A stretch of DNA of 64,000 nt from contig NW_026991412.1 in the NCBI RefSeq assembly GCF_036370855.1, positions 62,001 through 126,000 on the forward strand. The letters run 5' to 3'. The position numbers were made by a program, and so were the translations under genes. Origin of the DNA: Dromaius novaehollandiae. Lineage: Eukaryota > Chordata > Aves > Casuariiformes > Dromaiidae. Numbering within the stretch: position 1 is the first letter of the stretch; every line of letters begins with the position of its first letter. The notes beneath the pieces were generated by a model. The model did no database searches, was not told where the DNA came from, and saw only the letters and a program-made list of their open reading frames with translations. Shown here piece by piece: positions 1 through 64,000 of the stretch.

Positions 1-1117
1 TGCTATTGCTAATAAGCAGTCACAGTGGCGCTGGGGTAGCACGTGTAGTGGAGGCTAAATGCAATAATACCTCGTTTTGATGTTGTTCTCTTCTACGAAA
101 GCACTTGGAGCAGATTAAGACATCTCTCGTCCTATTTTGTTTATTGAGTGGGCCCTGATACTGGGGAGAAGCTGCCGTGAAGCAGACCTAGTAGTCAGCT
201 TCCTTAGAGAAGGCGTCTTGTCCTGTATTTGAGGGCTTCCGGTACGTTTTGACAGACAGTAGTGAGTGACGGGTTTCCTTTGGACCCCCCGGGGAGCAGA
301 AAGTTCTGCCGGGAAGGCAAAATGTTTCTTGCGGCTGGGTTGGAAGAAGCTGGCTGCTGATGCAAGGCAGTGACAATTCTGGGGAGTCGCAGGAAGTTCT
401 GAAAAGACGGTCGTTCCCTTTTCTAGAAGGCTATGCACTTCGGTTCCTAATAGCTGTAGTAATGAAGCCAGGTAAGCGTTCGGGAGGAGCCCAAGCCACT
501 TTTGCCTAGCGAGTATTTTGCAAGGGGGGCAGGAAAGCGCTGCGCCCTGCTCCTTGCTGCCCTCGCGTGTCTGAAAGGCGGCACTGCACGCGGGAGGGGG
601 GGCGCGCATGCGCATTGCGTTCCGGCGCGCTCACGGCTGCCCTCGCGTGTCGACAAGGCAGCACTGCAGCCGCCGGCGGCCACCGCTGCGTACGAAGACC
701 GTTGCGGGCAGCCGGCGCACACGTGCGCGCTGCCGGTCGCCGCGTTGGCCGCTACTCTGCGCTCTCTCGGGGACGGGTAAGCGCAGGGGCCGCGCTCGTG
801 CCCCCTGCCCGGTGCTCACGGACCGGGAGCGCTTTTCCCGAGAGGGCTTTTCCTTCTCGGTGCTTCCTGGGGGCGCGGGGACGGGCAGTGCTGTCTCGGA
901 GCTGCTCCGCGGCGCTCTCTCCCCGGGGCAGCCCCAGCGCCTGCTCGCTGATGCCCGCCGCTCTCTCGGGCGCGGGCAGAGCAGCCTCGGGGCGCTCGCT
1001 GCTCGGCCTGAGCGCCGGGGTGGCGCGGCGGGCTGCGGTTAGCGCGCGGGAGCCGGCCGGCTGCAGCGCGGCGCTGCGACCACGCGAGGGTGGGGCCATT
1101 GCGGGTCTGGCCTGCCT

Positions 1118-1353
1118 CGCGCTCCGCTCCCCCGCCCCTCGCGCTCCCCCCGCCCCTCTCGCGCTCCCCCCGCCCCTCTCGCGCTCCCCCCGCCCCTCTC
1201 GCGCTCCCCCCGCCCCTCGCGCTCCCCCGCCCCTCGCGCTCCCCCCGCCCCTCGCGCTCCCCCCGCCCCTCGCGCTCCCCCCGCCCCTCTCGCGCTCCCC
1301 CCGCCCCTCTCGCGCTCCCCCCGCCCCTCGCGCTCCCCCCGCCCCTCGCGCTC
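1118..1353. repeat. GC-box minisatellite, 12 units (copy 1)
   Basis: Tandem units of CGCGCTCCCCCCGCCCCT with an optional extra CT (18 or 20 bp, some 17 bp), about 12 in all. Each unit carries a CCCCGCCCC core that resembles an Sp1/KLF binding site. It ends directly before the AAGATGGCGGC motif. Confidence 0.95.
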
Positions 1354-1357
1354 GGGC

Positions 1358-1368
1358 AAGATGGCGGC
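1358..1368 (+). promoter_or_regulatory. YY1-type motif AAGATGGCGGC, copy 1
   Basis: A perfect match to the extended YY1 site found just downstream of many CpG-island transcription starts. Its orientation predicts transcription to the right, and an ATG at 1431-1433 followed by a donor-like GTGAGG at 1446 fits a short first exon. Confidence 0.65.
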
Positions 1369-1799
1369 GAGCAGGGCGGGTGTTTTGGCTGGACGGCGGC
1401 GGGCGAGGGCAGAGGCGCGCTGGAGTCGAGCATGTGGGGGCCGCGGTGAGGCGAGGTGAGGCGAGCGTGTGCCTTCGGGTGGCCGCGGGTGTCGGGCTGT
1501 GTCCTGCCAGCCGGGGCCGTCGCTGCGTGGAGGCGGCGGGGCGGGGGGGGGGAGTCGGGCCGGGGGCCGCGCGGCGCCGGGTCTGCGCGGCGCCGGGTCT
1601 GCCGGAGCGCGGCTCTGACTCTCCCTTTTGCGTGTGTCGCCTGTAGGGCCCCGGTTCCTCCCCAGCGCGGGCCGGGGCGTGCGCTCGCCCCTGCGGACGC
1701 AGCCTGGAGGAGCGGGGGGGCAGGCGGGCCCCGGAGCGGGATTAGGGCACGGCGTCGGCGGGAGGACGGCTCCTGATGCAATAGGCGTGCCCGAGAGTG

Positions 1800-2522
1800 C
1801 TGGTAGGTCATGAAGGAGTTTAAAACCTCTGGACCAAATAGGGTTAAGGTCAACTTGAGTTAGATACGATTAGTGCAGCCCCAAGTTATTTACTTGAGAA
1901 TTGTGGCTAGGCAAGCAAGAAGATGGGTAGAAGACAGATGCTCCTGGACACCCTGAGGCCTCCCCTGCCCCCAGGCACAGACTGTGGGTACCAGCCGACC
2001 TGGGCACCAACTGATTGGAACCCCCGCTGAGCCCTGCTCCCTCCTGTACAGCTGCCCTAAAGCCATGAGTTTCCCCGGTGCAGCATGTGTCGATGGGTCC
2101 TCCATTGCCTCTGGCATCTCCCCAGGCGCTCGTACGCTGCGCAGGGGTCTGGATGTTTCCAGCAGCGGCACAGCAGCCTGATGCCTCCTCTCGTCTGGGA
2201 TGCGGGGCCCTTGGTGAGTTCCCTGCTGCCTCCTCTGGCGTCCTCTGCGAGCTCATAAATCCCCCCTCCTCCTCCTCCTTCTCCTCCTCCTCTCCCTCCC
2301 CCCCCACCCTGTCTGGTGGGGTGGGAGACCCGTGGCTCCTCCTGCCAAGCTGACAGCCACGTGGGGCACCCCTATGCGCTCCCTACGCATCTGGGATGGC
2401 ACCCCTGCCCTGAGGGCCCCGCAGAGTCCCACCCTTCCTGCAACCACCCCCCCAAAGCCATTAAACCACACAATATCAGGTAAAAATATCAGGTAAAAAA
2501 AAGGATTATTTTTTAAACTAAT
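1800..2522. other. Flank of CpG island, no gene recognised (copy 1)
   Basis: Moderately GC-rich sequence with short ORFs on both strands and none that looks like a known protein. A CTC-rich pyrimidine tract lies at 2261-2308. A donor-like GTGCTG/GTAGGT lies near 1803. GC content drops abruptly near 2460. Confidence 0.5.
2261..2308. repeat. CTC-rich pyrimidine tract
   Basis: A run of CTC/CCT triplets and C-tracts. Its copy at 46143-46190 differs by one T to C change. Confidence 0.85.
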
Positions 2523-2667
2523 CTGTGGATAAAGCATGTATGTAATAGTCTGGAAACAATTGATAAGCATGAGTAAAATGTAATTCAGGGTCTGATCCTG
2601 TAATCCTTGCTCACAGATGTATAAATGATAACATTTTCAGTTTAAGGGCACAAGCAGTTCTAAAAAT
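2523..2667. other. 145-bp segment present in unit A, absent from unit B
   Basis: In unit A, AAACTAAT is followed by 145 bp ending in AAAAAT and then ACTTGACT. In unit B the junction at 46404/46405 reads AAACTAATACTTGACT. The shared AAT at both edges suggests a microhomology-mediated deletion in unit B, although an insertion in unit A cannot be excluded without an outgroup. The segment has no ORF and no element I can name. Confidence 0.9.
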
Positions 2668-4177
2668 ACTTGACTAATTTTGCTCCTTTCCCAGTATTCT
2701 GTAGAGAGTGGCTATTTTAAAAAGTTAACCAAGTCTGTGTAGTTTTAATTAGGTGTATTAAAAAGATAAAAGAAGGAAATATAGCTCACATTCAAGCACT
2801 CAAATATGTGAAAATAGCTGAAATTGCTCTTACTGCACTAAGCTCATTAAATTGACTTGCTGGAATGTTGCATATTAGAATGATCAGACCAGAGTGTTAA
2901 CAGCTTTAATGCTTTTATCTGGTGCAGTTCGCCCACCTCCCCACCTGAGGGTTACCGAGCAGGCACAGTCGACTTCCTTTCCGAGGGCTGTGATGCCGGG
3001 CTTCGTGCTGGTGTGTGAACTGCTGCTGTCTGTGCTTAGTGCAAAAAAGAGTAACTAAGACAGACCTTTGTGGTGAGAACCCTTGATAAAGTTCTGTCGG
3101 GAACGCATCCCGCTGTCCTCGATAGAAAAGCCACCCTAGATCTCAAGTTTGATTCGGTAACTGATTAAATGGATTCTGGTTTAGATCACGAATATATCAC
3201 ATAGTCAAAATTGTGCAATATTCTCCATGAACAGTTAAAGTGATTATTTCATTTTAGACCTTGAATAAGGAGATTGAATGAGCTGGTAAACATTACTTGG
3301 TGTTAAGATGGTATGAAAATTTAATATCTTTATTCTTCAGTCTCGGTGCTGCAGGAGTCTCTCTCTCATCCTGGTAGATAATATTAATTGCTGTTTCTCT
3401 ACCTATGGAGCATATGAGATTTGCCATGCAAGCTCAGAATGAATGCAGTTATCCAACAACCTTACACATTTAGAAAATACTTTCTGCAGCCAAGACATAT
3501 AGCAATGTTATAGCGTATGTACAACCTAAAAAGACGGTTTCCAGAGATGTATATGTATACAAGTTTCAGCCTTCTGGGTGTGTGACTATTCAGAGACTCC
3601 CAGCGAACTGTGTCCAGGTTAGCCTGTAGCCAAACAGGCAGACCCAGCACACTGTGCCTGTGGTGTGTTCAAGCCTAAAGAGACTTCAGGTGCACTGTCA
3701 TCACCGGGTATCATGCTGACACGGTGTCCACAAGGGGTGGATCTTTTCTGGGCAATTCACAGCTGCTCTTAGACTACCAAATAGTCAGAATCCTATACGG
3801 AATTATTAATGGTTTTGCTACTGGAAAAAAAGAGAAAGACAGAGTACTTGATCTGCATATTCATAGCCTGAAAGAACAAAAAAGATATGGGATACAGAAA
3901 AAAGAAAGAGGATAATAATTTATTTAAACATAAAAACAACATTAAACTACTGCTTCATTGTTCTACTACCTTTGGCTCACAGAGCTTAAGTTCCTGGGGA
4001 AGCATGGTAAGGGGATGAAATAGGATTTTTTTTCAGTTTTTTTTTAGTAGCAGACTAGTGAAGGTGATATGATCAAGGTCCCTAATCTTTTTTTTTTTTC
4101 CTCTACCCAAGAAAACTCAGAAGGATACATCACTGCTTTGACAGAGATGGGGATAAAACAAAATCAAAAAAAAAAAA

Positions 4178-4257
4178 GAGCTCCTTTTTCAGGAGCAATT
4201 CCCACTTACTGTGATTTGAGCTCCTTTTTCAGGAGCAATTCCCACTTACTGTGATTT
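4178..4257. repeat. 40-bp direct tandem duplication
   Basis: Two adjacent identical 40-bp units, 4178-4217 and 4218-4257, starting GAGCTCCTTTTTCAGGAGCA. Each contains the small inverted repeat GCTCCT-N5-AGGAGC. The pair recurs in unit B at 47915-47994, so it predates the large duplication. Confidence 0.95.
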
Positions 4258-5361
4258 AAGCACCCACTCTGAAGTTCTGGGACTAAGTACATGGTCCATA
4301 TGCTCTGACTACAAAAAACACTGTCCACAGAGAGCAAGGTCACTGTGATTACCTATGTAAAGTTTCCTTCAGGATGCCCGTTATCTGGAGAAACCCGTTG
4401 TTGCACATGATCTATCTTATATTTTCTCAACATATAATACAGCGATTTCTCAACATATAATACTTGAAGACCAATATAAATATTGTGTAGAATGATACTT
4501 TCTAAGTCATTAATTTTAAATCATAAATCAAAAATATTTTAAAAAGAGAGATTTGTTCTGCATTGTCAGAGAATAACTACTTCTAAAATAAACTAAAAAG
4601 GCTCTATAAATGAATAAATTTTGCAATTTTTTGCCTTCAATAGTGTTCAAAGGTTAAAAATGAATTAAAATTGTAAAATAAGTGCACTAGCTACTTATTT
4701 CATTTATTTTATCTTTCCCTTTCCTCCTTTGAATACTCTTTTCCTTAAATTGTATTTTCCAGATATTGCTATATTCCAGTTGTACTTTCTCTTTTTCTAA
4801 TATTCTCTTCGTAAGTATCCCCTTAAAGCACTTTAAAAAGTATCTGACGAATATCGCTGTTTCTCTGTATTATGTGAATGATGTTAATTATCTTTACTTT
4901 TTAATGGTTTAAAAATTCAACTTCCCTAACTAAGAGTATGTTTTTAAAAAAGTAGCGATTGCACAGGGGATGCTCCCATTTTCTATTTTTGCTTTTCTAG
5001 ATTAACGTTCAAATATTTCCTGATAGAAATGTATGTTTTTGCAGGTGGAACATTCCTCTGATAGGTACATTTGGTATTGAAATGAGTTAGTCCCGTATAA
5101 ATCCTGGCATAGGACTTTCTTCACTAGTTTTAGATGGATCTCTTCTTTCTCAAAGGTATGGCACTAGGTGAGAAAAAGGTGCCGTCAACCTGTAGTTATA
5201 TTTATACCCGTCGAGGGGTGGGGATCTTTATGTAGAAAGGGGACACACAAAAGTGTAGCGAAGGGGCATATTTTTCTAAATGTGCCCAGGAAACCTATGA
5301 GATAGGTGACACAGAGAATTCAGAGGCCTTAAAACAGTGTCACCATTTGAAAAGCAAATTA

Positions 5362-5397
5362 TAAGCTGCAGGAGTGTGTGCACTCCTGCAATGCTTA
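5362..5397. other. Hairpin-forming inverted repeat
   Basis: TAAGC-T-GCAGGAGTG, loop TGTG, CACTCCTGC-AAT-GCTTA. Nine perfect inner pairs and five outer pairs are separated by an asymmetric bulge. The copy lies at 49099-49134. No function is assigned. Confidence 0.7.
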
Positions 5398-7375
5398 ACA
5401 TAACCACAGTCTTCACTTTGAAGTATGCCTGACTATTGGCTTACATCCCGTTTTCATGTAGCAATATCCAAGGTAACACAAATCTGGCTCCAACTGTAAT
5501 GTACGTAGGAGACAGCGAGTATTAAGACACCAAAGAATTCAAAATGTTTGAATCTGGAAGGACGAAAGAACAGCGTACTCAGTGATCAGCCTTTCAGGTG
5601 AAGGAGACAACAGCTGTGGTTTTGGTCCCTGTTCCCTTGATTATTTCTGTATGCATGGGTTAGTGACTATCTCATCTAATTAAAAATAAACACTGTGATC
5701 GAGGATCAAAACTCACAGGTCCCTCTTTTCCTTGGCAAAGCCGTAACTAAATGCTGTTGAATATGTGTGATATGTTATGTGCAGAGCCCTTTAAGATTCC
5801 ATCTGATTTCTTTGATCTTGTTTTAGGGTGCTTTCAGTGTATTTCCAGTGAGCTATAGTTTGCTCAAATATGTATATGTATTTATGTATATGTTAACATA
5901 TATATGTTTTAAATTCCTCTTCCCTTTGCATTACTCTACTGATTTTTTTTCTTATAACTGTCTCCCATGTCAAGAAGATTTAACAAAATGAAAAGTATGT
6001 CTTCATAGGATAAAGACACATTTTTGTTAGTTACCGTAATACAGACATGAAAGGAAAGATAAAAGAAAAGAGAAGTAGTTCTTCAGATAAAGTCCGTTAA
6101 GTATTCATAATGTGATGACATAGGTGATTGTGATATTATCTAGACAGAAGAGCTCTGCCGAAGGTAGCTTTCAGACAATTATATTGGTAAAAAGAAAAAC
6201 TGGTAAAAGCTGATGAAGTCATTAAATTTTCAAAAGTTACAAATTATCCTGTAAAGCTTCAGTGACTGCAAATTAGCCTTTGCTATAGCCCTCTGCTAAC
6301 AAGCTATAGATCATTTTATTATTCATGAATTTTAGTAATTTCAGGACACCACAGGTCATCTTATGCTCATTTATTTGCTAAACACCTTGTGCTGGTATGC
6401 CTATGCTGAAAAATTGCTACTATTTACTTCCCGTGAGACAAGCAAGCAACAAACTGGTGGATTTGGCCCCAGACATCCACTCTGCCAGGCAACATATACA
6501 TCTTGCTGTCAGTGAAATAAATGAGCCCTTAAATTGGCTGCAAAGCTTTAAGAGCTGAAATTTGTATGTCTAGTTATCAAACAGCAAGTTCAGAACACCT
6601 GCCAATATGAAACATAATTATGACAAGCTGTTACATTTTACCTTTAACTTTTCAGCTTTAACACCACAACTTCATTATAAGAATCTCCTCCTCCCTGCCC
6701 CTCCTTTCTCCCTTCCCCCAGACTCAGCTCCCCTCCCAAAAAACGCTCACTGCATTCCATTGTAAATGCTGAGTTAACGCTAATACACTGGGTCATCTAT
6801 CAGCAGACAAAAAAAAAAGTCAGACATATTAAAAATGCTAGGATTCCTCCTAAGAATAACCACAAATTTTCACAGATTACCAAAAATGGCTAACTGTGTG
6901 TAGATACCTGACCTTTATAACCGCCTTTGAAGGCTTTTCAGAGAAAGTCAAAAATCATGAAACAGACTTACAGATTCCTTGTTTTGTTTTTTACTTGAAA
7001 AAATCGATTCAATTACTTCTATCTTATTTCACTGACCGACTTCATTATCTTTCCTTTTGGGTCGCAGAGCCCTACGGCACAGGTTTTTGCCACAACAAAT
7101 CCAACAATTGATAAGCTGTTTGCTGTTTATCCAAATGTTCATGGGAGGGCAAAAAAAGAAAAAAGCCACCAAAAATAAATGTTACTCTTCTTTAAACCCA
7201 CTTTAAACTATGCCCTGTGTGCACTATAACTAAATATCTTCCCTTGTGTGCATGTATACCTCTGTGTTACAAACCACAAACAGCTATGTGAGAAGAACAC
7301 TATTTAAAGGAAAGACTTTCTTCTTAGCTGTCAAGGAAGATAATATCTAGGCTAAAATTCATTTCAACATTTTTT

Positions 7376-7429
7376 ATAGATATATATATATATGTATATA
7401 TACACATATACACACAATATGTATATATC
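7376..7429. repeat. TA/CA-rich simple repeat
   Basis: Alternating TA, ATGTATA and CACA steps. Copy at 51113-51166. Confidence 0.85.
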
Positions 7430-8510
7430 AATATGAAGAGCTTAAAAATTACAACCCTTGACCAATTGCACCCTTCTGGTCAATAAAGTAAATATGAGCA
7501 ATATGAGAAACAAATCAAATGTATGAACTTTACCTCTTTTATTACTTTGACCATATTATTTCTTTTTTTATAGCACCTGCATACTGTATTTTCATTCAAG
7601 AAATTTGATTGCGGATAAAGTAGTCCCTACATGTCATAGCAAAAAAATGACACACTAGCCAAAGTTTAAGTCAATGTATTAGTCAAAACACACCTTCTTT
7701 TCTTCTTTTTCTGACCTTTTGCTACAGACATAGAAATCTCACATATATTTTGGGGTTAACAGGACTTCAGCAGGGCAATCTGTGTTTTAAGCAGGGTTTC
7801 TTGCTGGTTCAGATATATTGTTTGTTCAGTGTTGGGATCCTATGTATTCATACTGCGTTTTCTGTGTTTTGTGTACTGATAATGAATTAAAACAGCAGAA
7901 AATCATATACGTATATTTTAAATGTGACATGTCTGATTTCATTTTAATGTGATTTGAAATATTTCACCCTGAATTTATAAAAAAAATCATTAGCACAGCT
8001 ATACGCATTGTCTTTTCATGATTTTAATTTCTTATTCTTCAATTAAAAATATGCTAAAAGCAGATTTTGCTTAAATTCTGAGATAGTTTGGATAGATTTA
8101 GGACCAAATTGTGGCTGCTTTCTGTGTGCAAGCTTTGACTAGAAAGGTGACACAAACAAACATTTCTACCTGGTTTTCAAGGATATGTCAATAAGGTCTA
8201 TTCACACCAGTGCACCATTTAGCACCACCAGCGTTCATGGAAATCCAGAAGTAGCACATGCCTCTGTTCACAGAAATCTCAGCCAGCTTTCTCTGATGCC
8301 TCGTACAACCATCACTGCAGCCACCACTGTCGAGCTAATTCAACTCTTCCAAAAATCAGCAACTGCTGATAAATTCTTGTCTTAATATAAAAGTTGTGTT
8401 TCAATTTTATCCATAATCATAATTTTGAGCATAACAAAAACAAGAGTAATATTCATATCAAACATAAAAAGCATGTGGTGTATGTGAATCCTTATGCCTT
8501 ATCTCTGCTG

Positions 8511-8555
8511 CATTTACCTATTGGTAAATGATTCTGACTCTCACCTGAGTCAGAA
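8511..8555. other. Two back-to-back perfect hairpins
   Basis: CATTTACC-TATT-GGTAAATG (8-bp stem) at 8511-8530, then after one base TTCTGACTC-TCACCT-GAGTCAGAA (9-bp stem) at 8532-8555. Both stems are perfect. The copy is at 52248-52292. Confidence 0.7.
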
Positions 8556-8974
8556 CCCAAATTCGGCATGTGCTGCTTATTCGGGTTGTACATAGATTTG
8601 CTGGGAATGGTGACAGAAAGGAGAGAAAACAAGGATTCGCCTGGTCCAGGTTAGATGTGTTTTGGCTGCCTCCTAGGCGGTGAACCCAGGTTTAGTCTCT
8701 GTCAAACACTGGAGTAAATGGGTCAAAGTGGTGTGTGCCAGACTTGGGAACCAATTTAAATTCCCAGATTATTTAGGTTAAGTGTAGTCAGACACATCAG
8801 AAGACAGCTGCTTTAGGACTTGTCTCACCTATCGTTCAACTACTCCGAGTTTCCAGTTCATGTGTGGTCGTCGACAGTTCAGATGTCTAAATTTGTTTTT
8901 ATAAAACAAATCTGAATTTTTGTAATTTGAGAGATTTTACTGTTACCCTGTAATACAGTATGGGCATTGCTAGC

Positions 8975-9125
8975 TCCTGGCCGTAAGCTTCGCACTGAGT
9001 TTGCACAGCCTCGGGACTGAGGCTGGTCAGGCTTGGCCCGAGTTTTGTCTGAACTCGTCTCGCCTGCAGCTCTGCTTCCCTCGGCTTAGCTGGGGCAGCA
9101 GTTTTTCTAACTGCCCGGATGGCGA
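8975..9125. other. Local GC-richer patch inside AT-rich spacer
   Basis: A short stretch with several CpGs and no long ORF, unlike the DNA on either side. It could be an exon of a non-coding transcript, a regulatory element or an old insertion. Copy at about 52712-52862. Confidence 0.4.
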
Positions 9126-9530
9126 TGGCTATTTTATTTTACTTGTGTTTATCTTTGTACGGTAGAACCATAGGTTGATAAACAAACAGGACAACAAAAA
9201 ATGCACATTTAACTTATGTAAAAGGCCCCAAACACCAGAAATTCATATCCAACACAGAGCTGCAGACCAATGAAGAAAGAATGATGTAAAAGCATACTAG
9301 AAAACATATAAAAATAGCCGCAGATGAATCCTAGAGTGAGTAGGAGGAAACCATCACCATGAACATCATATTCCTCCCGGCGAAGGAGCCCAGATGCTGA
9401 CAGCTCGCTCTAACACCCACCGTCATCCCGCCATAAATGAACCACAGACCTAGGACCTACGGAGCAACGGAAGGGTGAACATAATACTGGGAAAAGAGTA
9501 GAAACTCTGAAGTGTAACAATTTTAACAGT

Positions 9531-9551
9531 ATTATTATTATTATTATTATT
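9531..9551. repeat. ATT trinucleotide tract
   Basis: Seven ATT units; same length in unit B at 53268-53288. Confidence 0.85.
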
Positions 9552-11337: not shown

Positions 11338-11445
11338 CCACTCTCTTTCTCTCTCGTTTTTCTCTTTCTCTCTCTTTTCCCTTCCCCTTCCCCTTCCCCT
11401 TCCCCCTCCTCTTCCACTTCCCCTTCTCTTTCCCCTTTCCCTTTC
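11338..11445. repeat. Polypyrimidine tract (CT and CCCCTT rich)
   Basis: About 108 bases almost wholly C and T on the plus strand, grading from CTTTCTCT to repeated CCCCTT. Copy at 55075-55182 with no length change seen. The arginine/glycine-rich ORF on the other strand is a product of this tract. Confidence 0.9.
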
Positions 11446-12239
11446 CATGCCTCTTCTCCATGCAATTCTTAACTGTTAGGTAGTAGGCAAAAAACTCTTG
11501 AAAGAATTGGGTTTAAGAAGTCCAATTGTGTAGTAAGATGGAATTGTGGAGGAAATGATGCCTTGTAAGTCAATAGACTAATACTGTAAAAAGCTATCAA
11601 TCAGCCAAGCTTTATTTCTTTATTTCTACTGAGAGAAAAATATTTAAGATACTACTAAGAGTAATCCCAGTGAGATAAGCTCTATATACTAATTTATAAA
11701 GCATAATAAAATATTCTTTAATGAAGATTTTAGTGAATTTTTATACATACACACATGCACACACACAGAAATCTATTTTTGCATTCACAAACATATATAT
11801 TCATATGGACACCAAAGAGTTTGTAGAAGCCAGTTACTCAAATAAAATTACAAATGTATTTTTAGCTAACATAAAATTCTGGTTCAGAACACTGTTTTGA
11901 CAAAAACCAGCTCACCTCTAAGCTTCTTAATTGTCCCACTGATTTTATGTGACTAATATTTATTTCTCTTAATTCAGTTTTAAGCAATGCAGAATGTCTA
12001 CAGCTGAACCAAACTAAGCTCTCCTCACAGTAAATGGAGAGACGTAGGCAATGAATAGGTAATGTTAATGTTAAATGTTTAAGATAATAATAACTGTGTT
12101 CTACGAGTTTCTCTCCAGTGATGATAAGCAGTGATCTGAGTGACTAATTCAGCTGTAAGCTTGGTAAGAGAAATATTACCTCTCAACTCCCCTCTTACAG
12201 AAAAAGTCATATATATGAATAATTCACTGAATCAAAATA

Positions 12240-12589
12240 CTAAACATGTTGTCTGGATTTATTACTAAAGAGGCTGTGTGTTTGTCTTCTGATGACACAA
12301 GCAGTCTTGCTAACAAGGCTGACTTCGGCATCGTACCACAACTATGTGCATCACCACGCACTGAGGCAGTCAGTGGCAGGTCACTCTGGGCTCTACCAGA
12401 ACGAACAACACTTGTTAAAGAGCCAGTCCTGGAGACCAGGGGCAAAAGTTGCTTGTAGCTGCCATCATTTAAGGACACCGCAGCTGGACAGGCAGACAAA
12501 GCGGTGCTGGTAGGAGAGTGTAAATACAAGATATGTTCTGAGTCTTTCTGGTTGAAGACATTCTCTAAAAACTCTTCTACACATGCTGT
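12240..12589. other. Mid-GC segment beside the CR1 fragment, unassigned
   Basis: Base composition rises here, and short ORFs occur on both strands (for example 12224-12529 minus and 12246-12458 plus), with no family I recognise. It may be an old degraded repeat. Copy at 55977-56326. Confidence 0.35.
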
Positions 12590-45235: not shown

Positions 45236-45239
45236 GGGC

Positions 45240-52400: not shown

Positions 52401-55400
52401 GGCTGCCTCCTAGGCGGTGAACCCAGGTTTAGTCTCTGTCAAACACTGGAGTAAATGGGTCAAAGTGGTGTGTGCCAGACTTGGGAACCAATTTAAATTC
52501 CCAGATTATTTAGGTTAAGTGTAGTCAGACACATCAGAAGACAGCTGCTTTAGGACTTGTCTCACCTATCGTTCAACTACTCCGAGTTTCCAGTTCATGT
52601 GTGGTCGTCGACAGTTCAGATGTCTAAATTTGTTTTTATAAAACAAATCTGAATTTTTGTAATTTGAGAGATTTTACTGTTACCCTGTAATACAGTATGG
52701 GCATTGCTAGCTCCTGGCCGTAAGCTTCGCACTGAGTTTGCACAGCCTCGGGACTGAGGCTGGTCAGGCTTGGCCCGAGTTTTGTCTGAACTCGTCTCGC
52801 CTGCAGCTCTGCTTCCCTCGGCTTAGCTGGGGCAGCAGTTTTTCTAACTGCCCGGATGGCGATGGCTATTTTATTTTACTTGTGTTTATCTTTGTACGGT
52901 AGAACCATAGGTTGATAAACAAACAGGACAACAAAAAATGCACATTTAACTTATGTAAAAGGCCCCAAACACCAGAAATTCATATCCAACACAGAGCTGC
53001 AGACCAATGAAGAAAGAATGATGTAAAAGCATACTAGAAAACATATAAAAATAGCCGCAGATGAATCCTAGAGTGAGTAGGAGGAAACCATCACCATGAA
53101 CATCATATTCCTCCCGGCGAAGGAGCCCAGATGCTGACAGCTCGCTCTAACACCCACCGTCATCCCGCCATAAATGAACCACAGACCTAGGACCTACGGA
53201 GCAGCGGAAGGGTGAACATAATACTGGGAAAAGAGTAGAAACTCTGAAGTGTAACAATTTTAACAGTATTATTATTATTATTATTATTGAGGCTTTTTTG
53301 GTGTATAGAACCCTTCTTCTCATGTAACAATTTCTTCTGGACGAATAACGATCCTGCATTTAGACCGTTAAGATTCCCACTATATTAACACTAAATTCTT
53401 GGCTTTATATGTAAGGTATGTTTCCTCTTTGCCCATAAACAAGATTTTGAGCATAACACTATTATTTATTTTGATCCTAGTAATATTATATGTTAACATA
53501 TAGGCAAAATATCATAATTAGCAAATTAAAAAAGTGTAAGTGGTTGAGAATATAGGCAGGATACATTTATATTCTCTTTTAGGCATGTGATCCCTGTCTT
53601 TAAACCTAATGTCAATCCAATGTGTTTTGGCTATTTCATATCTGTCATGAAAATCTATAGAGTTTAATGAGGCTCTGAGATTCTCTGGATGAATAAAAAA
53701 AATAGAAACATACAGAAATTACAGTAAAAAAATCAAAGAAATCTGAGAAAAGGAATAAATGGGCATGTTATTGATTCTGTAAAAACAAATTGTAAGTGTT
53801 TTTTCCTCCCTTGAGTACTGCATTGACAGAGAAGAACAGAGCAATAGAAAAGTATAAAATAAGCCCTGTAGGTATCTTTAAGAGTCTACCTTTCTGGTTG
53901 AAGAGCAAAAGCTATAACTGGTCGTTTCCTGTTCTTCTGAATTTGGCAAGTGTTATTTTCGGTTTCTGGGTTTTGTTTTGCTTTGTTTTTCCCACAGGGT
54001 TGTTTTTTACCTGGGAGGTTTTAGTAAAACTTTTCTCCTTGGGCTTTGGGTTCAACAATCTAATGTAAGCTGCCTGGGCTAAGTTTTATCCTATGCAACA
54101 CTTGTAAGTTTGCACTAAATTTACAGAATTAAATCCATTAGACTCAGTTCTAAAATAGAAATTATTTTTAAATTGTCTTCATTACTCTTTGAAAGTTGTG
54201 AATTTGCACATGATTTTTTTGTGTTGCTGTTAAAATGAATTTTACCTTAATAACTTTCATTTAAAATACTTCTAATTGAATGATTTTAATCCAGGGAATC
54301 TGACTAAACTTTGGAAGGAATTTTCTGTGTTGATCACTTAGAGATAAGCAAGATAGCACTTGTGAATCAATGAGAGCAACGATGACCTCCAATATTAGTG
54401 CTTACTTGCGTTTGCCATCTAATACGGTTTTAAATCAGTTTCTGAACTTACTGAACAGAATACATTCAATTTGTAAATGCTGGTGAATGTTCAAGTGAAA
54501 AATCTCAGTAGATAGTGGGAAAGCAGAAAAAAGATTTACGATTACTATGAAAGAGCTTAAGTACTGAGTCATAAACATAGAATCTTTTTTATTCAGAGTT
54601 GTTGTATGAAGACAACTTTTATCGAATGTCAATATGTCTTTAACAGACCAGCTCATCCTGCAGTATAATGGTTTATCATTACTACTGAATGCCCCGAAAT
54701 ACAAACAGATAACTAAAATTCTCAGGCCTCATTTTCAGGTACCTGAGGGTACTTTACACTGTTCTATGAATAGAAGTGTACTGAAGCTTAGTAATATAAA
54801 TGAAAAAATAATTTCTTATTTTTTTCTTTGCTTCAGTAATAGAACAGAATAAGACACCAGTGGAGTTCTCTATGAATATTAATGTTCAGGTTAGAAGCAT
54901 AATCCTGAGATATATCTGTACAAGACACACAGTACCAGACTCTTCTTAAAGTCAAAGCTTTCATTTATTATTAAAATTTCAGCAAATATTATTTGGGGTG
55001 CTAAATGAGATTATAAAAAAAAATTGAAGATCCATGATCCTTATCCCATTGACTTCCATAGATTTGTCATGTCCCCACTCTCTTTCTCTCTCGTTTTTCT
55101 CTTTCTCTCTCTTTTCCCTTCCCCTTCCCCTTCCCCTTCCCCCTCCTCTTCCACTTCCCCTTCTCTTTCCCCTTTCCCTTTCCATGCCTCTTCTCCATGC
55201 AATTCTTAACTGTTAGGTAGTAGGCAAAAAACTCTTGAAAGAATTGGGTTTAAGAAGTCCAATTGTGTAGTAAGATGGAATTGTGGAGGAAATGATGCCT
55301 TGTAAGTCAATAGACTAATACTGTAAAAAGCTATCAATCAGCCAAGCTTTATTTCTTTATTTCTACTGAGAGAAAAATATTTAAGATACTACTAAGAGTA

Positions 55401-55976
55401 ATCCCAGTGAGATAAGCTCTATATACTAATTTATAAAGCATAATAAAATATTCTTTAATGAAGATTTTAGTGAATTTTTATACATACACACATGCACACA
55501 CACAGAAATCTATTTTTGCATTCACAAACATATATATTCATATGGACACCAAAGAGTTTGTAGAAGCCAGTTACTCAAATAAAATTACAAATGTATTTTT
55601 AGCTAACATAAAATTCTGGTTCAGAACACTGTTTTGACAAAAACCAGCTCACCTCTAAGCTTCTTAATTGTCCCACTGATTTTATGTGACTAATATTTAT
55701 TTCTCTTAATTCAGTTTTAAGCAATGCAGAATGTCTACAGCTGAACCAAACTAAGCTCTCCTCACAGTAAATGGAGAGACGTAGGCAATGAATAGGTAAT
55801 GTTAATGTTAAATGTTTAAGATAATAATAACTGTGTTCTACGAGTTTCTCTCCAGTGATGATAAGCAGTGATCTGAGTGACTAATTCAGCTGTAAGCTTG
55901 GTAAGAGAAATATTACCTCTCAACTCCCCTCTTACAGAAAAAGTCATATATATGAATAATTCACTGAATCAAAATA
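46405..55976. other. AT-rich spacer without recognisable gene (copy 2)
   Basis: Copy of 2668-12239 with the same simple repeats, 40-bp duplication and hairpins. Only isolated substitutions were noticed. Confidence 0.6.
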
Positions 55977-56326
55977 CTAAACATGTTGTCTGGATTTATT
56001 ACTAAAGAGGCTGTGTGTTTGTCTTCTGATGACACAAGCAGTCTTGCTAACAAGGCTGACTTCGGCATCGTACCACAACTATGTGCATCACCACGCACTG
56101 AGGCAGTCAGTGGCAGGTCACTCTGGGCTCTACCAGAACGAACAACACTTGTTAAAGAGCCAGTCCTGGAGACCAGGGGCAAAAGTTGCTTGTAGCTGCC
56201 ATCATTTAAGGACACCGCAGCTGGACAGGCAGACAAAGCGGTGCTGGTAGGAGAGTGTAAATACAAGATATGTTCTGAGTCTTTCTGGTTGAAGACATTC
56301 TCTAAAAACTCTTCTACACATGCTGT

Positions 56327-57247
56327 GATCTAACACCCTCCCATCAGATATTTATAAACATCCCTGTGGCCCTTTGCTGGAATCGCTCCAGTAGCTCCAT
56401 GTCTCTCTCGTACTGGGGAGCAAGGAGCCGGACCCAGCCTGACTCCAGGTGTGGCCTCAGCAGTGCTGAGCAGAGGGGAGGGATCCCCTCCTGCAACCCG
56501 CTTGCAACACTCTTCCTAGTGCAGCTGTTAAGCTCAGGCTGGAGCTGGAGCTAATGCAGCTCAGGACGATATCAGCCACCTCTGCCACGAGGGCTGTTGT
56601 TGACTTGTGTCCAACTTGTTGTCTGCCAGGACCTCGAGGTCCTTCTCTGCAAAACTGCTCTCCAGCCCATCAGTCCCCAGTTTGTCCTGGTGCATGGAGT
56701 TACTCTGCCCCACCACCACCCAGGTGCAGGCCTTTACATTTCCTTTTATTGAACTTTGTGAGGTCACTCTCTGCCCATTTCTCCAGTCTGTCAAGGTCCC
56801 TCTGAATGGCAGTACAACCATCTGATGTATCTGCTGCTCTTCTCAGCTTTGTATCATCTGCAAACTTGCTGGTGATGCACTGTGTCCCATCATCCACTTT
56901 TCTGACCTGTACTTCATCAAGACCATGAGGATATTATGGGAGACAGTGCCAAAAGCCTTCCTGAAGCCAAGGGAGACAACATGCCCTGCTCTCCTCTCAT
57001 CCACCAAGCCGGTCATCTCGTCACAGAAGGGGATCAGGCTGATCAAGCACTATTTCCCCTTTGTAAATCTGTGCTGACTGCTCCCAGTCACTTTCCTGTC
57101 CTTCACATGGCTGGAAATAATACCCAGGATTAATTACTCCATCACCTTTGCAGGAATTTAAGGTGAGGTTGGCTGGCTTGCAGTTGCCCATATCCTCCTT
57201 CTTGCCCTTCTTAAGATAGTTGGGGTGACCCTGCAGGACAACATAAA
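56327..57247 (-). mobile_element. CR1-type LINE fragment, copy 2
   Basis: Same element at the same relative position (+43737). It was therefore inserted and had decayed before the 43.8-kb duplication and marks the two units as copies of one ancestor. Confidence 0.88.
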
Positions 57248-60200
57248 AGATCATTTTGAAGCAACTTTGTTTAAACTGTCAGGATGCTCTATGGGAAATA
57301 AGTTTATATTAGTCAGTAAGTTCAGCAGAGTCAGCCCATTTGCCGTCTCTAGTTCCACCACAACCTTAGAGTAAGGCTATGGGCTGGGTCCCATTTAAAC
57401 TTTAGGTGCCTGTGTGTAGACATCTACACCTATCACAGTCACACTGTATTCCTTTCATAGAAAGAAATCGTTACTTCTAGATTCATTTGATGTATTTCAT
57501 ATGTTTTTTGGACAGAACAAGGTGAGTTACACTGTTTTACACAGTGTTTTTTCCAATGCCTGTTCAGTAAGCAAAGGTTAACTGGCTCAGCTGCAGACAG
57601 CTACATTGTAAAACACAAATTTAGTTAGATGACTCTAGCGCTTCAGCACTGCAGGTAAATGTAATTTTCACAGTAGCAGGAGAGGGCTGTCAGTGGTGTA
57701 ATTTCTGAAAGTCCTGGTCGCAGCTGGCAGAGGCTGCTTTTCTGGTGTGATGATCCGATTATAAGATCAGGGCAGAGCAAACAACCGATGATTGTTCTGA
57801 TGCAAGAAAAAGACACAGTCTTTAGAGGTAATTAAATGGCCCCTTACGCTTTGGTGAAATAAATACATAAAATAAATTGAAATAAATCCTTACTGGAAGC
57901 AATGATTAACCAGAAGTGAACAATAATTTCTTTAGAGACCTGTAGGCTTTAACTTTCAGTGGACTAATAGCATCACAGGGGCCAAAATAGATGGCATTTT
58001 TATTTGATTTTAGTGATGACTTATTCCTTATGCAAGTAATTTTCTGTGAAGATAAGAGTTTACGAGAGAGAAATCCTGAAATGTAAGTAGCTTATATAAA
58101 CATCTCTCCAAGGAAATCTGTATTTTAAATTGCATTTACTATTAAAGACATCATATCTTTAATTGAACTGAAAGAAAAATGTTTTCCACCATATTGTTCA
58201 CAGATTTTGTAGGCTCTTAAAGTTCCATGATGGTGATATTTCTGATGTAATAGTTCTCCACCTTTAATCTTCATGATTTCATGAGATTCATCTATTTTAT
58301 TCTCCCAACAACTTTTTATAATGAGAACACATTTTTTCTATACATTTTTAAGAGCTGTTATATGAATCAACATATGCAGTTATTAACGTGTACCTATATA
58401 GCAAAGTATATGTGTTAGAATACAAACGATTTTTTTTTTCCAGAGATATTCATCATTGGTACCGTGTATCAACCAAAACCAATAGAATTATATGCTGCTT
58501 TCAGAATTAAGCAGCATGACTCCTACTGCACTTAAAATTTGAGCTCTTGCTAGTTCCTGGGGGATTCATGCATTCATGGTTAAATTTTGCTTCTCTGACA
58601 CAGGAGGAAAGCTCATTTCTGCTACTTTTGCTTTACGTTAACAGAGCATGAAATAAACAAAAATTTATCATGATTCGTAGCATTAATTAACTAGACGTAC
58701 TGATGTACCACAGATTTCATTTACATCAGTCCCACCACAACAAAAAGATGTTTTGTCAGAACCATTCTTATCTTTCCCTTCCCAAATAATGTGTAACCAG
58801 GGAATAAAGTAAGAAATGGTATTTCATTTTGTACTACATAAAAATCATTTACTAATATAATGGGACCTACTGACAAGAATGAACTGTATGGACCAAGACA
58901 CATGCAAATATCCTTCTAGCATTTAATCCAACATAATACAGATTTGTTTGTGTTTATTTATACATATATTTATTAATTCATGCTAGCAATCACAGAGAAC
59001 TTCATGATTCAAAAAGCCTTAATTCCTCCCAAATTATCAAACATAACTTGTTCTGTCTTTTTTTTTCCCCACTGAATTCCCTTCCCCCCCCCAACAACAA
59101 ACAAAAACCCTTTCTTCCTAATAATTGGAGTGAATAATTGAGTTAAAAGGCTATTTCTGTACTAGATACTGCTATCAAAACTCTGTTCTTATACGGTGAT
59201 ACTATGCAGAACTACATAAGTTGTGGACCCCATCGCTGTGTTTTGAACAGCTTTGCTCTAAGAAATTTTCAGCCTTTTGTTCATCTATTAAATGTAAGGA
59301 ACACGATGTACTCCTTCAGAGGTATTTATTGAAAATATTTTTCATTAGATCATGGTCAGTGTTGATCTCCGCAGGAGAATGTGTTGGTGGGGGGGATTGA
59401 AGGAGTTTCTTATTTTTCTGTTGTTGCATTAGATAAGCTTCTGAGCTGCCCAGTGTTGGAATCTGAGAGGTTTCAGGTAGCATTTTTCAGGGTTTCTTTT
59501 TTCTTTTGTAATTTATAGATTAGAGCTTTTCAGATTAATTTTACAGTGATTGTAATAACAATTAACTGCGGTGCTTATGCCTATTAGAGTTGAGACTGTG
59601 GCCTATGAAGATTAAATTCACTTGTCACTGAACTGTAAATATTTCTTGTATGAAACACAGTGATATTCTGCTAGTCTTTGTATCCAGGAGAATAAGACTG
59701 TTAACAAGGAAGAACCCTATGCCAGTCACTAAGAACCACATAACCTATGGAAATCTCTTAAGAGAAAAAACAAAATCTGACCAAATTAGCTGCCTAATTT
59801 CAGCACTGAAATGTCTAATAAGTAGTCTGTGGTCATCAGCTGTGAAATACAGACTACGAAAATCAGGTAGCATGGTTCCAAGCACTGTTCATGCAATTTT
59901 ATATTAAACAGTACTGGATAAAATAGGAATAATCTAGCAATAAGGTCAGAAATTCTCAGGAAAGCCCTTGTTCAGATAAATGCCTGATCTCTCTTACCTT
60001 CTCTTATGGTCTTGGCTATACAGTGGTGCATTTTTGTGCATTTTCAATGGGAAAACTGAACAATGTTTTCACCCTTGTGCTTAGGGTACTCTCTCAAATT
60101 TGAGGAACTTGGGTGAATATCCTCAGCAACCTGGTGAAAGTCTAGATTTCCAATGCCTTGGGACAGTGCTGGAACTGTTAGATTATTATAAAATGATTGT

Positions 60201-61459
60201 TGGCCCTATTAACTACAGAATAAACATTGAAAATGTTAATCAAAATCTGATCACATGCAACTTCTCAGATACTTCTGAAGATGAGAGATTTTGAAAATTC
60301 TTCAGTCGTATCTGGACAGTAATGAATTTTAAGAAGGAGATGGACGACTTTCTGCTCTTTCTACTCAAAAAGTATGTCTTTAATCATGTACATTTCAACT
60401 TATAGGTTAGTTACTTGATTATCACAAAAGGACATAGAGTATTTGAGGTATAGATCATAATGAAAGATCATTTTTCTGGCTTGCTATTTGAGATTTTGGG
60501 AAATTTCAGCATATGGCTTCCCAGGTAGGTGGAATATAGTTAAACAATTTCTGGTGAAATGTTGCACTAAAAAATAATGGATCAATTGCTTCTGTTAGAA
60601 GAATCAAACTGAAAGCTATCGTGAAGAATTTGCACACCTAAAACTGTATTGATTTCTCTACACACCATTACTTTGTTTACTGGATATGGCTTTTCTATCA
60701 CAACAACAGTTTGCTTACTTTCTTTAAAAAGCATCTCTACAGCTTTGGCTTCAGATAAGCCTCTAAGCAACTTAGCAGCAATTATCATTTAGACTGCTAT
60801 GCTTAAACAGGAATTGAAAGAAACTCAGAAGCAGCCTCTTGAACGGCCTGTTCTTTCTCTGCCCTTTTGTGAAGATCGCTTTGCATTGAAAGCCGCAGGA
60901 CCCGACCGTTCAAAGACAGCCCTAGCAGTACTCTGCTGTCTCACATTCTTTCTACTGACTGGCATTTGCTTGGTGAGGAGTACAGGACTCCTGCGTGTGC
61001 GACACACACAAGTACCCTCTGAACAGAGGCTTGGGTGCTGGAAGTACTGGTGGGCCTCTGCTGAGCTTTCTACATGGCTAAGGAGGGGCACCAGAGAGGA
61101 GAAGGTCTTCCAGTCAGTCCTTACTTCCACACGGCTGGGGCTGTAAAAAGCAGAGCCAAAACACACAGGAATGGCCAGAGGCTGCTACTCCAGACTCCAG
61201 AAAGCGAATCCCCATCTGGCCAGAACGCAGTCCCCCCCCACAGACAAATATGCTCTGGAATCACTCGCCCACCTCACGGTGTTCAAGGTCAGCTCCAGAC
61301 GCACAGCCCTCTCCAGCTCCCCCCCATACAGACACAGCTCAAGCACACTGCCAGCACAGCTGGGCCACGCACACAACAGCCCTGCTTTGGCCAGTGGCTT
61401 GTCAAGAGGCCCTCCACCCCAAGGAAGCACCTCGTGGATTTCTGTTCAATAGGCAATGT
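57248..61459. other. AT-rich spacer leading to second MROH 3' end (copy 2)
   Basis: Copy of 13511-17722. No gene recognised. Confidence 0.5.
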
Positions 61460-61465
61460 TTTATT
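61460..61465 (-). terminator. Poly(A) signal AATAAA of MROH gene, copy 2
   Basis: This is the same hexamer and spacing downstream of the stop at 61585-61587 in the second unit. Confidence 0.75.
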
Positions 61466-61584
61466 TCAGTCAGCTGATTGCACTGGCTCCGTGGTAACAC
61501 TCTGTGGACTGCCTGCTCTTGCCTTGCCTGTCTTGCCTTCCCGCTGCTCACTTTCTGCACTCAAAGATGTTTTTGGAGGACCTC

Positions 61585-63840
61585 CTAGTTGCTCCGAAGA
61601 TTCCTGAGCTCCACCCAGTTGTCTCTGAGGACTTGAGCTGCTGCCTGCTGCACACTGGGATGCTCGTCTCCGTGGAACAAGTGGAGAGCTGAAAATGACA
61701 CAGGCAGATTCCTAAATGACTGCCAAAGCCCAGGACCGAACGGTCGTGCCGTCCCTGACTCTCTGAGCGAGCACCACTCGAGAAAGCTGGGCAGCTTTCC
61801 CTGGGCTCAGTCCTGGGAGAGGGAGGGAAGGGTGGGAGATGAGTGGTCTGCTTTGCACACTGTCACTGCAAACCCTTGGCCTTCTGCACATAGTCAGCGA
61901 GAGAAGCTCTCTCCTGGCACCAAAGCTTCCTCCATCAGGAGTCTTCCATCTCCCTCTAAGTGGCCAGGAGGCTTCTTCTACTTCAGCCATTTGGCCGAAT
62001 GTGTGCAAAAGCTTAGTTTCTCAAGAGCCTGACTTTTCCCAGCGGTTACCCAAAAGACATTCAGAGTTTATCAGGAGCTTCTCTCTCTGGGGATGCAAGA
62101 GCACGGAGGCCATGTGCAGCTGACATAAAGTCATACCCAGGATGAGTATTGGGGCACGACACCAGAGAGAAGGGGCAGCGTTGGGCAGTGGAAGGTGGTG
62201 ACATCTTTCCATGGAATGCAGGAAGGGCAACTGTAACCTACCTGTGCTCAGAAAACTCGTACTGTGCTCTCTCAGCCACTGGCTGTCTGCGTTTTCCAGG
62301 ATAACACCTAGTCGCACAATGCAAATAAGTAAACATCAAGGCACTTCCTGTGGTAGCCCTAATTCCCAATCTAGTCGCTTCCTGGTCTTGGACAATGGAT
62401 GATAGGCTTTGGGGAGCAGGGGAAAGCTAGAAATACCAAACCAGAAGGGTCCCTCCCGCTTTAAAGTTCCTGGGCAGAAGCAGGAGGCAGAGCTGAGCAA
62501 CTGTGTGCGCCAGGGGCCAAGCCTAATGTGGAGCACTAATTCCACTGTGCCTTTGCTAGAGACTTCAGCCCCTTTACAGCCTGTAACTAATTCCTCCTGC
62601 TGCCACCCTCCTAAGGCAGGTGACTGTCCCTGGTGCCACTGCAGAGAAAGTGGAGATTGTCCTTTGCTGTCTCTTGCAGGGAGCAGCAGAAGAGAATATC
62701 AGCTTTGTCTCTTACCAGCTAATTGGATGGCTGCAGTCCGCATCCCCCAACACGAGCTCCAGAAGTAGGTCTGGAGGGTGTCATAGACGCTTTGCAGAAG
62801 CTCTGGCATGTCTCTGGCCTGGTAGAAAACAGAGAAACAGGAGTTCTTTGGCTGAAAAGGCCCTGCCATTGACCCTTGGCAAAGAGGGCAGATGAACTAG
62901 GAGAGGAAGGAAAGAGACGGAGGCTGCAAGGGACTGACAGTTCCCATCATTGCCATGCTAGTTCCCACCCTACCACTTCCCAGAAGGCCGCTCCATGCTC
63001 CAGGTCTCTGAGCCAGGGAAAGTCACTGCCACCAGGCAGTCTCACCCTGGGCCACAGCTTACTCACCAGGTGACTGCAGACAGCTTCCTGGAGCTCTTCT
63101 GCACTCTTCTCGGTGTTCAGAGCAACTTGGGTTTGCAGCTTCTGCAGGCCCAGGAATGGAGTGCAGAGCAGGAAAGTGCTTCGACAGGCCTGAAAAGGAG
63201 AGTTGCCCCAGCTCAGCCCTCCCCAGGACCAGCGAGGTGCCTTTCAAGGGACCTCATTGAGCTGAGCCCTGCTGTTCTCTTTCAAGAGGGGGGGATGTTT
63301 CACTCAACGCCATTTATAGAAAGGAGAGGGGAGGGATTGCAACAGCAGCCATCGTTCCCCTGGCCTGGTATGTGGCACTCCAGAGAGAGTATCGGTGCCT
63401 GAGAGCTGTCGCCGCACGATAGCTGTTAACTGATGTGCCCTTGGGAGAAGCCCCGGATCTCAGGAAGCAGGGGAGATCAGAAGGGACATGGTCAGCAAAG
63501 GCTTGGAGGCCTGAGCACTGCGGAGTCTGGGAAGACTGTCCTGCACCTCAAACAGAAAATGCTGTTGGAAGAGTTTGAGGTTGTCTTTCCATGCAGAGAC
63601 ATTATCAGGAAGGCCAGTATTGCTCTGCTGTTACCATGTAGCACCCTCCTCATGAAGAAAGAAGTGAAAGGTGGCTCTTACATTGCAAACTTCTGGATCT
63701 GGGTCCTGAAGATGGAGCATAATTCTGGTCCACGTAGAAGTTGTAATTTCTTTGCCGAGAAAAGATTTCCATTTCCTCTTGGCAGAGGAGGCCAGGACTC
63801 CATACAAGGTGAAGGCTGAGGAACGAAGGACTGCCTCGTC
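61585..63840 (-). CDS. MROH2-like: Second MROH2-like gene copy, last five coding exons (cut by window end)
   Basis: Exons equivalent to 37-41 of the first copy lie at 63682-63840, 63067-63189, 62716-62818, 62242-62307 and 61585-61688, with stop at 61585-61587. Translations of these exons match the first copy. Splice borders are conserved. The rest of the gene lies beyond base 64000, so whether the whole second copy is intact cannot be judged here. The gap from this stop to the start codon of the first copy (42720) is about 18.9 kb, so genes in the array run in the same direction with large spacers. Confidence 0.9.
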
Positions 63841-64000
63841 CTGCAATCAGGAAACCCCAGTCACCAAGTTGCTGCCTAGGACCCCAAAACAAACATCTCC
63901 TGGCCAGCCAAATGCTGAGCCCATATCCTGAGCAATGGTTCTAGGCAGTTTGTCCAAGGCCAGAGGATCAAGAGAATCCATTTCTTTGAAAGACACCATT

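What the first reader, a model, noticed from the sequence alone, without database searches (positions are those of the whole stretch)
1..64000. Near-identical head-to-tail 43.8-kb tandem array carrying a whole large gene
About 20.2 kb of unit B can be lined up with unit A, with only a handful of substitutions and three kinds of length change. Similarity reaches base 1, so more units probably lie upstream. This is either a very young or gene-converted amplification, or an assembly artefact joining two haplotypes. The array units carry one full gene, one CpG island and one spacer each.
Basis: partly seen in the sequence, partly recalled or inferred. Interest (0 to 1): 0.85.

Follow-up and report, generated by a model that had tools for sequence, protein, structure and literature searches.

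The report
Emu tandem array of MROH2B-like genes
This stretch of bird DNA (emu, or its closest relative) repeats one complete 25-kb protein gene head to tail in nearly identical 43.8-kb blocks, a probably real but ordinary kind of gene array whose germ-line function is likely but unproven.

Summary
Bases 1-20263 recur at 43800-64000, collinear and in the same orientation. Outside one minisatellite they differ by six substitutions (all transitions), one single-base indel and one 145-bp indel in 19,889 compared bases. One complete gene lies on the minus strand: MROH2B-like (maestro HEAT-like repeat), modelled with 41 exons and 1624 aa, ATG 42720 to stop 17848, no internal stop, with a CpG island 1.5 kb upstream of the ATG. 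The 3' end of a second gene copy and the island of a third lie at the window's edges. Protein matches point to emu: 982 of 996 and 466 of 468 residues identical. Both emu models list a 776,062-bp contig, long enough for 17.7 units; the larger cluster has 21 member sequences. That makes a two-haplotype mis-join unlikely, but no reads or annotation were seen. Most likely a young or homogenised tandem gene array, kept similar by unequal crossing-over and gene conversion (inferred). Each unit's island carries a minisatellite of GC boxes, 12 versus 16. A new member of a known kind; ten paper searches, most with capped listings, showed no description.

The parts
1..20263 (.). left part of the window's repeat, recurring at 43800-64000
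   Evidence: blastn self-comparison, difference list
43800..64000 (.). second occurrence of bases 1-20263; no array end inside the window
17848..42720 (-). complete MROH2B-like gene, 41 coding exons, 4875-nt CDS, 1624 aa, no internal stop; exons from 42720-42696, 42257-42118, 41239-41123, 40299-40134 ... to 18570-18505, 17951-17848
   Evidence: homolog-guided gene model, boundaries partly set by hand; four MROH Pfam families above cutoff
44181..45780 (-). CpG island upstream of the complete gene (presumed promoter), 1.46 kb from the ATG
   Evidence: sliding CpG measure; CpG obs/exp 0.81-0.96 in the island kilobases
44925..45233 (-). minisatellite, ~20-bp unit, 16 copies; 16 GC boxes (GGGGCGGGG) read on the minus strand
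   Evidence: TRF, motif count
381..1900 (-). CpG island of the next gene copy to the left (its coding part lies outside the window)
1125..1353 (-). same minisatellite, 12.3 copies; 12 GC boxes on the minus strand
2520..2664 (.). 145-bp segment present here, absent from the other copy (after 46401); 3-bp AAT microhomology at the ends
61585..63840 (-). 3' coding exons 37-41 of the gene copy to the right (cut by the window end)
   Evidence: tblastn hits 61588-63840; ungapped copy of 17848-20103
17723..17728 (-). polyadenylation-type hexamer (AATAAA or ATTAAA) 120 nt past the stop codon
   Evidence: motif scan
1901..17722 (.). mostly AT-rich spacer between gene copies; no Pfam match above cutoff, no Rfam match at gathering score, no tRNA
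   Evidence: composition, six-frame Pfam scans, Rfam, ARAGORN

Best explanation
A genuine head-to-tail tandem array of a large protein gene in emu (or its sister genus Casuarius). Each 43.8-kb unit is a self-contained gene unit on one strand: CpG-island promoter region, 41-exon MROH2B-like gene, polyadenylation signal, AT-rich spacer. SHOWN: the repeat, an uninterrupted gene model, its family, near-identity to annotated emu proteins. INFERRED: unequal crossing-over and gene conversion between units create and homogenise the copies, so that neighbours differ by only about 0.03% in DNA while other emu copies differ by up to 1.4% in protein. INFERRED: the preserved CpG island implies lack of methylation, hence activity, in the germ line, so the array probably supplies a high dose of a HEAT-repeat scaffold protein in germ cells. 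INFERRED: minisatellite length (12 versus 16 GC boxes) may make promoter strength differ between units.
For: Periodicity over the whole window. A 1624-codon frame without a stop across 41 exons. Full-length match to kiwi P0001 (1079 identical of 1630 columns, 107 gap columns) and gap-free 982 of 996 to emu P0003. N-terminal emu model P0121: 466 of 468. P0003 cluster of 21 member sequences and P0121 cluster of 6, both listing a 776,062-bp contig, 17.7 periods long. Emu P0174: 258 of 261, longest listed contig 170,266,025 bp. Four MROH Pfam families in order, E 1.4e-172 to 8.9e-32. The six substitutions between units are all transitions, as real mutation would favour. Germ-line link: human MROH2B is listed among testis-specific genes (PMC7436996, passages seen).
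Against: No read depth, spanning read, expression or methylation data. The genome search did not complete (7 attempts), so units in the source assembly were not counted. Cluster sizes may include isoforms, other contigs or other assemblies, and I did not see the contig's annotation. The window itself shows only about 1.46 periods. AG acceptors and GT/GC donors were required by the modelling scripts or chosen by hand, so they are no independent proof of splicing. In the window copy residues 727, 1187 and 1265 (R, I and W in 5 of 5, 4 of 4 and 4 of 4 aligned relatives) are G, L and C, so this copy could be under relaxed constraint. Testis specificity is of human MROH2B, not of this paralog.
Confidence: 0.83

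Rival explanations
1. False duplication: the assembler placed two haplotypes of one locus end to end.
For: Only about 1.46 periods are visible in the window; the differences (0.03%, minisatellite length, one 145-bp indel) are also what two alleles could show.
Against: Emu protein clusters of 21 and 6 member sequences list a 776,062-bp contig, and three distinguishable C-terminal versions exist: window, P0003, P0174. The single-coverage stretch 20264-43799 carries an unbroken gene beside its island, so any mis-join would have to be in phase.
Confidence: 0.1
2. A real but small duplication (two or three units), not a large array; the other emu copies are dispersed paralogs.
For: The window itself proves only about 1.46 periods; P0174 lists a 170-Mb contig and the P0173 lineage (398 of 561 identical) a 233,304-bp contig.
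Against: Similarity runs off both window edges. The 776,062-bp contig is listed for a 21-member cluster and has room for 17.7 units.
Confidence: 0.12
3. The array is a decaying, non-functional amplification whose copies stay open only because they are too young to have broken.
For: Changes at conserved residues in the window copy (727, 1187, 1265); a branch of about 0.2 changes per column leads to the array genes, against 0.10-0.15 end branches for kiwi and ostrich.
Against: No stop or frameshift in 1624 codons although the protein is only 66% identical to kiwi, so it was constrained for most of that time; the CpG island is preserved.
Confidence: 0.15
4. The DNA is from cassowary (Casuarius), not emu, and the array is shared by both.
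For: Protein identity is 98.6-99.6%, not 100%, to the emu models, and no cassowary name appeared in the three search listings.
Against: Emu copies differ among themselves anyway: P0003 and P0174 differ at 1 of 261 sites. The hit of highest identity is emu in each of the three searches.
Confidence: 0.12

Closest known systems
MROH2B / MROH2B-like genes of birds and turtles (maestro HEAT-like repeat family)
   Same: Same domain order (PF23221, PF23210, PF21047, PF23227) and length class, 66% identical to kiwi P0001 over the full length
   Different: Belongs to a palaeognath clade separate from the copies on ~82-88-Mb contigs and from the neognath copies in the tree, and is present as near-identical 43.8-kb tandem units
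Vertebrate tandemly arrayed genes (survey PMC2547482; passages seen)
   Same: Head-to-tail, same strand, one gene family
   Different: That survey reports 60-83% of arrays as having two members; here each repeated unit holds a 25-kb, 41-exon gene with its own CpG island, and the related contig has room for about 17 units
Large-unit homogenised arrays: opsin array, RCCX/C4 module, TSPY array (recalled, no call)
   Same: Units of roughly 20-40 kb carrying a whole gene and kept similar by unequal exchange
   Different: Different gene and lineage; copy number here is not measured
Great tit FAM118A amplification (PMC12786263; abstract and outline seen)
   Same: Multi-copy amplification of a poorly known gene in a bird, missing from the reference
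   Different: There a nested 630-bp repeat and a >30-Mb polymorphic expansion; here whole 43.8-kb units

Membership tests
MROH2B-like (maestro HEAT-like repeat) protein family | MROH-specific HEAT families in order PF23221 - PF23210 - PF21047 - PF23227 above curated cutoffs | tested here: met
   111.1, 575.8, 167.2 and 128.4 bits against cutoffs of 27, 27, 27.4 and 27 at residues 56-245, 250-900, 926-1138 and 1331-1611
MROH2B-like (maestro HEAT-like repeat) protein family | full-length alignment to annotated family members | tested here: met
   kiwi P0001 66.2% over 1630 columns, emu P0003 98.6% over 996, ostrich P0002 62.5% over 1627
Tandem gene array | at least two adjacent same-strand copies | tested here: met
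   one complete gene plus the 3' exons of a second and the island of a third, all on the minus strand; holds for the sequence as assembled
Tandem gene array | more than two copies in one molecule, confirmed by reads | not testable with these tools
   no reads; the genome search did not complete. Indirect support: 776,062-bp contig listed for a 21-member cluster
Array under concerted evolution | neighbouring copies more alike than copies elsewhere or orthologs | tested here: inconclusive
   adjacent units 0.03% apart in DNA; window versus P0003 1.4% apart in protein; where P0003 and the window lie in the array is unknown
Germ-line expressed ampliconic gene | expression in testis or ovary | not testable with these tools
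   no expression data; human MROH2B is listed as testis-specific in PMC7436996 (passages)

The most novel reading that the evidence does not exclude
The array is an avian ampliconic germ-line family in which each unit carries its own GC-box minisatellite promoter of different length, so that expression per unit varies while coding sequence is held nearly constant by conversion: a built-in, quickly evolving dosage dial for a fast-diverging MROH2B-like protein in emu, possibly driven by sperm competition or by conflict between sex chromosomes.
Probability: 0.1. Interest if true: 0.6.

Novelty: new member of a known kind. Interest (0 to 1): 0.4.

Why it matters
Large-unit gene arrays are often collapsed or scattered over unplaced contigs (general knowledge), so this gene's copy number and role may have been overlooked: the two emu models listed on the 776-kb contig each cover only part of the gene found here. 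If confirmed by reads, it would give a ratite example of strong homogenisation acting on a 41-exon gene, and units that differ naturally in a promoter minisatellite while the 555 coding bases that could be compared are identical.

Tried and rejected
First guess from size alone (ribosomal DNA unit): rejected, as only one GC-rich block of about 2 kb per unit exists and Rfam gives no match. Second guess (HINTW array of the avian W): only weak matches to recalled HIT-domain stretches, on the minus strand in the wrong order for a gene. The long plus-strand reading frames have no Pfam match above cutoff; the gene is on the minus strand. The weak PF17535 match (E about 0.0099, 15.7 bits against a cutoff of 25) on the plus strand, and weak PF17566 and SepQ matches on the minus strand (E 0.12 and 0.19, below cutoffs), were set aside as chance. 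Recalled transposon consensus pieces gave one inexact CR1-like 14-mer per unit and nothing else; this is a poor test for transposons. The first gene model had wrong ends, one spurious internal exon and several missed exons. The second put two false exons into the CpG island, read through two introns, kept one spurious exon and used a wrong acceptor. Both were replaced by the model, whose boundaries I set partly by hand against homologs. Sex-chromosome or chromosome placement was not testable; contig sizes of relatives (about 82-88, 170, 223-226 Mb) are from search listings, and naming the chromosomes would be inference. Age of the duplication was not computed, because a mutation rate would be recalled only. 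Structure prediction was not run. Rows for the trees were picked by me for length and taxon: 28 of the 172 proteins held plus the window model, and 14 of 185 plus the window model, trimmed to the C-terminal part. In one search the fork joining the array genes with emu P0177 and two Apteryx owenii fragments has 90/94 support, and one of these fragments has a very long branch.
Full report
OBSERVATION. The self-comparison confirms the repeat. Bases 2665-20263 recur at 46402-64000 with 4 mismatches and no gap in 17,599 bases, and bases 1-2522 recur at 43800-46404. Listing the differences base by base gives six substitutions outside the minisatellite, all transitions (391, 2293, 3515, 9467, 16289, 17278), one single-base indel (596), one 145-bp indel (2520-2664, present in the left copy only, with a 3-bp AAT microhomology) and a minisatellite length change (12.3 versus 16.0 copies of a ~20-bp unit). 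Two further mismatches and five indels inside the minisatellite alignment were not counted. Six in 19,889 compared bases is 0.030% (interval 0.011-0.066%). The period is 43,737-43,883 bp depending on the place. Such a match cannot be chance (BLAST E = 0). Position 43800 is not a boundary; it is where base 1 recurs. Neither end of the array is in the window, which covers about 1.46 periods.

WHAT THE UNIT CARRIES. The plus-strand frames hold no protein domain above cutoff. A six-frame Pfam scan of one whole unit, reading stops as X, finds MROH2B-type HEAT families only on the minus strand, collinear from about 40.3 kb down to 21.2 kb. A first gene model by dynamic programming gave a protein draft, whose homologs then guided a refined model. 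The result is 41 coding exons, ATG at 42720, stop codon ending at 17848, CDS of 4875 nt, 1624 aa and no internal stop. The 40 acceptors are AG; 39 of 40 donors are GT and one, after exon 3, is GC. These dinucleotides were demanded by the scripts or chosen by hand, so they do not test the model independently; the homolog alignments do. Single boundaries may be off. The exon 3/4 junction is the least certain: the model lacks two residues that kiwi has there. A polyadenylation-type hexamer lies 120 nt past the stop. The protein exceeds the cutoffs of PF23221, PF23210, PF21047 and PF23227 in the family order.

PROMOTER SIDE. CpG islands lie at 381-1900 and 44181-45780, the latter 1.46 kb upstream of the ATG. 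CpG observed/expected is 0.81-0.96 in the four island kilobases, against 0.04-0.54 in the other 60 kilobases of the window. The minisatellite brings a GC box (GGGGCGGGG) with each of its monomers on the minus strand, that is, in the direction of the gene: 12 in the left copy and 16 in the right. That such boxes bind Sp1-like factors is general knowledge, not tested here. Transcription start sites were not determined.

SPECIES AND COPY NUMBER. Three protein searches were run. The hit of highest identity is emu in each; by score alone, kiwi P0001 and ostrich P0002 come first, because the emu model is shorter, and emu P0173 comes first. P0003 (996 aa) is 982 of 996 identical without gaps, P0121 (476 aa) is 466 of 468 identical over the aligned part, and P0174 (261 aa) is 258 of 261 identical. 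P0003 and P0121 list the same 776,062-bp contig and stand for 21 and 6 member sequences; they cover different parts of the protein and may be one copy. P0174 lists two contigs, the longest of 170,266,025 bp. The 776,062-bp contig is 17.7 periods long. This is indirect evidence: the member counts may include isoforms, other contigs or other assemblies, and I did not see the contig's annotation. It still argues against a two-haplotype mis-join. Cassowary is not excluded. The assembly itself could not be searched: seven identical requests did not complete.

RELATIVES. In a 29-row tree the window gene and P0003 join kiwi and ostrich proteins from 223-226-Mb contigs (five-row clade, support 100/100). 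The copies on ~82-88-Mb contigs of ostrich, kiwi, rhea and emu, together with one emu copy on a 10.5-Mb contig, form another clade that joins the eight neognath rows (100/100). A 15-row C-terminal tree adds emu P0173 (listed contig 233,304 bp, 4 member sequences), which groups with kiwi P0001 and the ostrich proteins; it is 457 of 561 identical to kiwi but only 398 of 561 to the window. The same tree puts emu fragment P0177 and two Apteryx owenii fragments beside the array genes (90/94). So emu holds at least two lineages of this palaeognath gene, one closer to kiwi and one diverged and apparently amplified. Whether the split predates the emu-kiwi divergence rests on short fragments.

HOMOGENEITY. 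Neighbouring units differ by 0.03% in DNA, and none of the differences falls in the 555 coding bases that both units share. Against other emu models the protein differs at 14 of 996, 2 of 468 and 3 of 261 sites. The differences are of mixed polarity: the window copy departs from residues conserved in the four or five aligned relatives at 727, 1187 and 1265, and P0003 departs at 652 and 1154. The units may be homogenised locally or expanded recently, but the species' copies are not uniform. Without positions along the array this is suggestive only.

MECHANISM. Shown: tandem units in the sequence as assembled, an open gene model, its family, near-identity to emu proteins. Inferred: unequal crossing-over and gene conversion as the source of amplification and homogeneity; germ-line activity from the preserved CpG island; a dosage effect. 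Human MROH2B is named among testis-specific genes in PMC7436996 (passages seen). MROH2B appears among spermatogenesis-related outlier loci between two penguin species in PMC11371425 (passages seen). PMC5391009 (passage seen) states that protein structure and function of MROH family members are unknown.

LITERATURE. Ten searches of the held open-access library showed no listing that describes an MROH array in emu or any ratite. Limits: searches found no paper; one search listed 9 of 9; the others listed only part of what matched (20 of 177, 20 of 36, 20 of 1,152, 20 of 52, 20 of 80, 12 of 28, 10 of 638). One search used whole-word matching of 'MROH2', which would miss 'MROH2B', so it tests little. 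Listings alone were seen except for PMC7436996, PMC11371425, PMC5391009 and PMC2547482 (passages) and PMC12786263 (abstract and outline). Tandem gene arrays are common in vertebrates, though 60-83% of arrays have two members (PMC2547482, passage).

ODDS CHANGED ON RE-CHECK. Holding the report against the calls showed that P0003 and P0121 may be one copy and that the splice dinucleotides are no independent evidence. I therefore lowered the best explanation from 0.85 to 0.83 and raised the false-duplication rival from 0.08 to 0.10.

VERDICT. A correct observation. It is most likely a real tandem array of MROH2B-like genes in emu, a new example of a known kind. It is of moderate interest because of the size of the unit, the open 41-exon gene, the per-unit promoter minisatellite and the lack of any description in the listings seen.

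Noticed in passing
window 41122 (minus strand): The intron after exon 3 starts with GC instead of GT, and the model lacks two residues found in kiwi at this junction; the boundary may be misplaced.
   Followed up: partly
window 8370-8436 and 9655-9721: Two 67-bp stretches 79% alike, 1285 bp apart, in the spacer; possibly remains of an old repeat.
   Followed up: no
window 4178-4261 (and 47915-47998): A 40-bp tandem duplication in the spacer (two 40-base copies identical), present in both units, so probably older than their split.
   Followed up: no
window 11379-11443 (and 55116-55180): CCCTTC hexamer array of 10.8 copies, same length in both units although the promoter minisatellite changed length.
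   Followed up: no
protein hits P0008, P0021: Sea turtles show very large clusters of MROH2B-like proteins (143 member sequences for Natator depressus P0008, 95 for Caretta caretta P0021), suggesting large expansions in turtles too.
   Followed up: no
protein hit P0173: Emu also holds a second lineage of the same gene (4 member sequences, 233,304-bp contig) closer to kiwi (457 of 561) than to the window gene (398 of 561).
   Followed up: partly
window 17848-42720, protein hits P0003, P0121: The two emu models compared with this gene cover only residues 629-1624 and 120-587 of the predicted protein, so those models appear split or truncated.
   Followed up: partly
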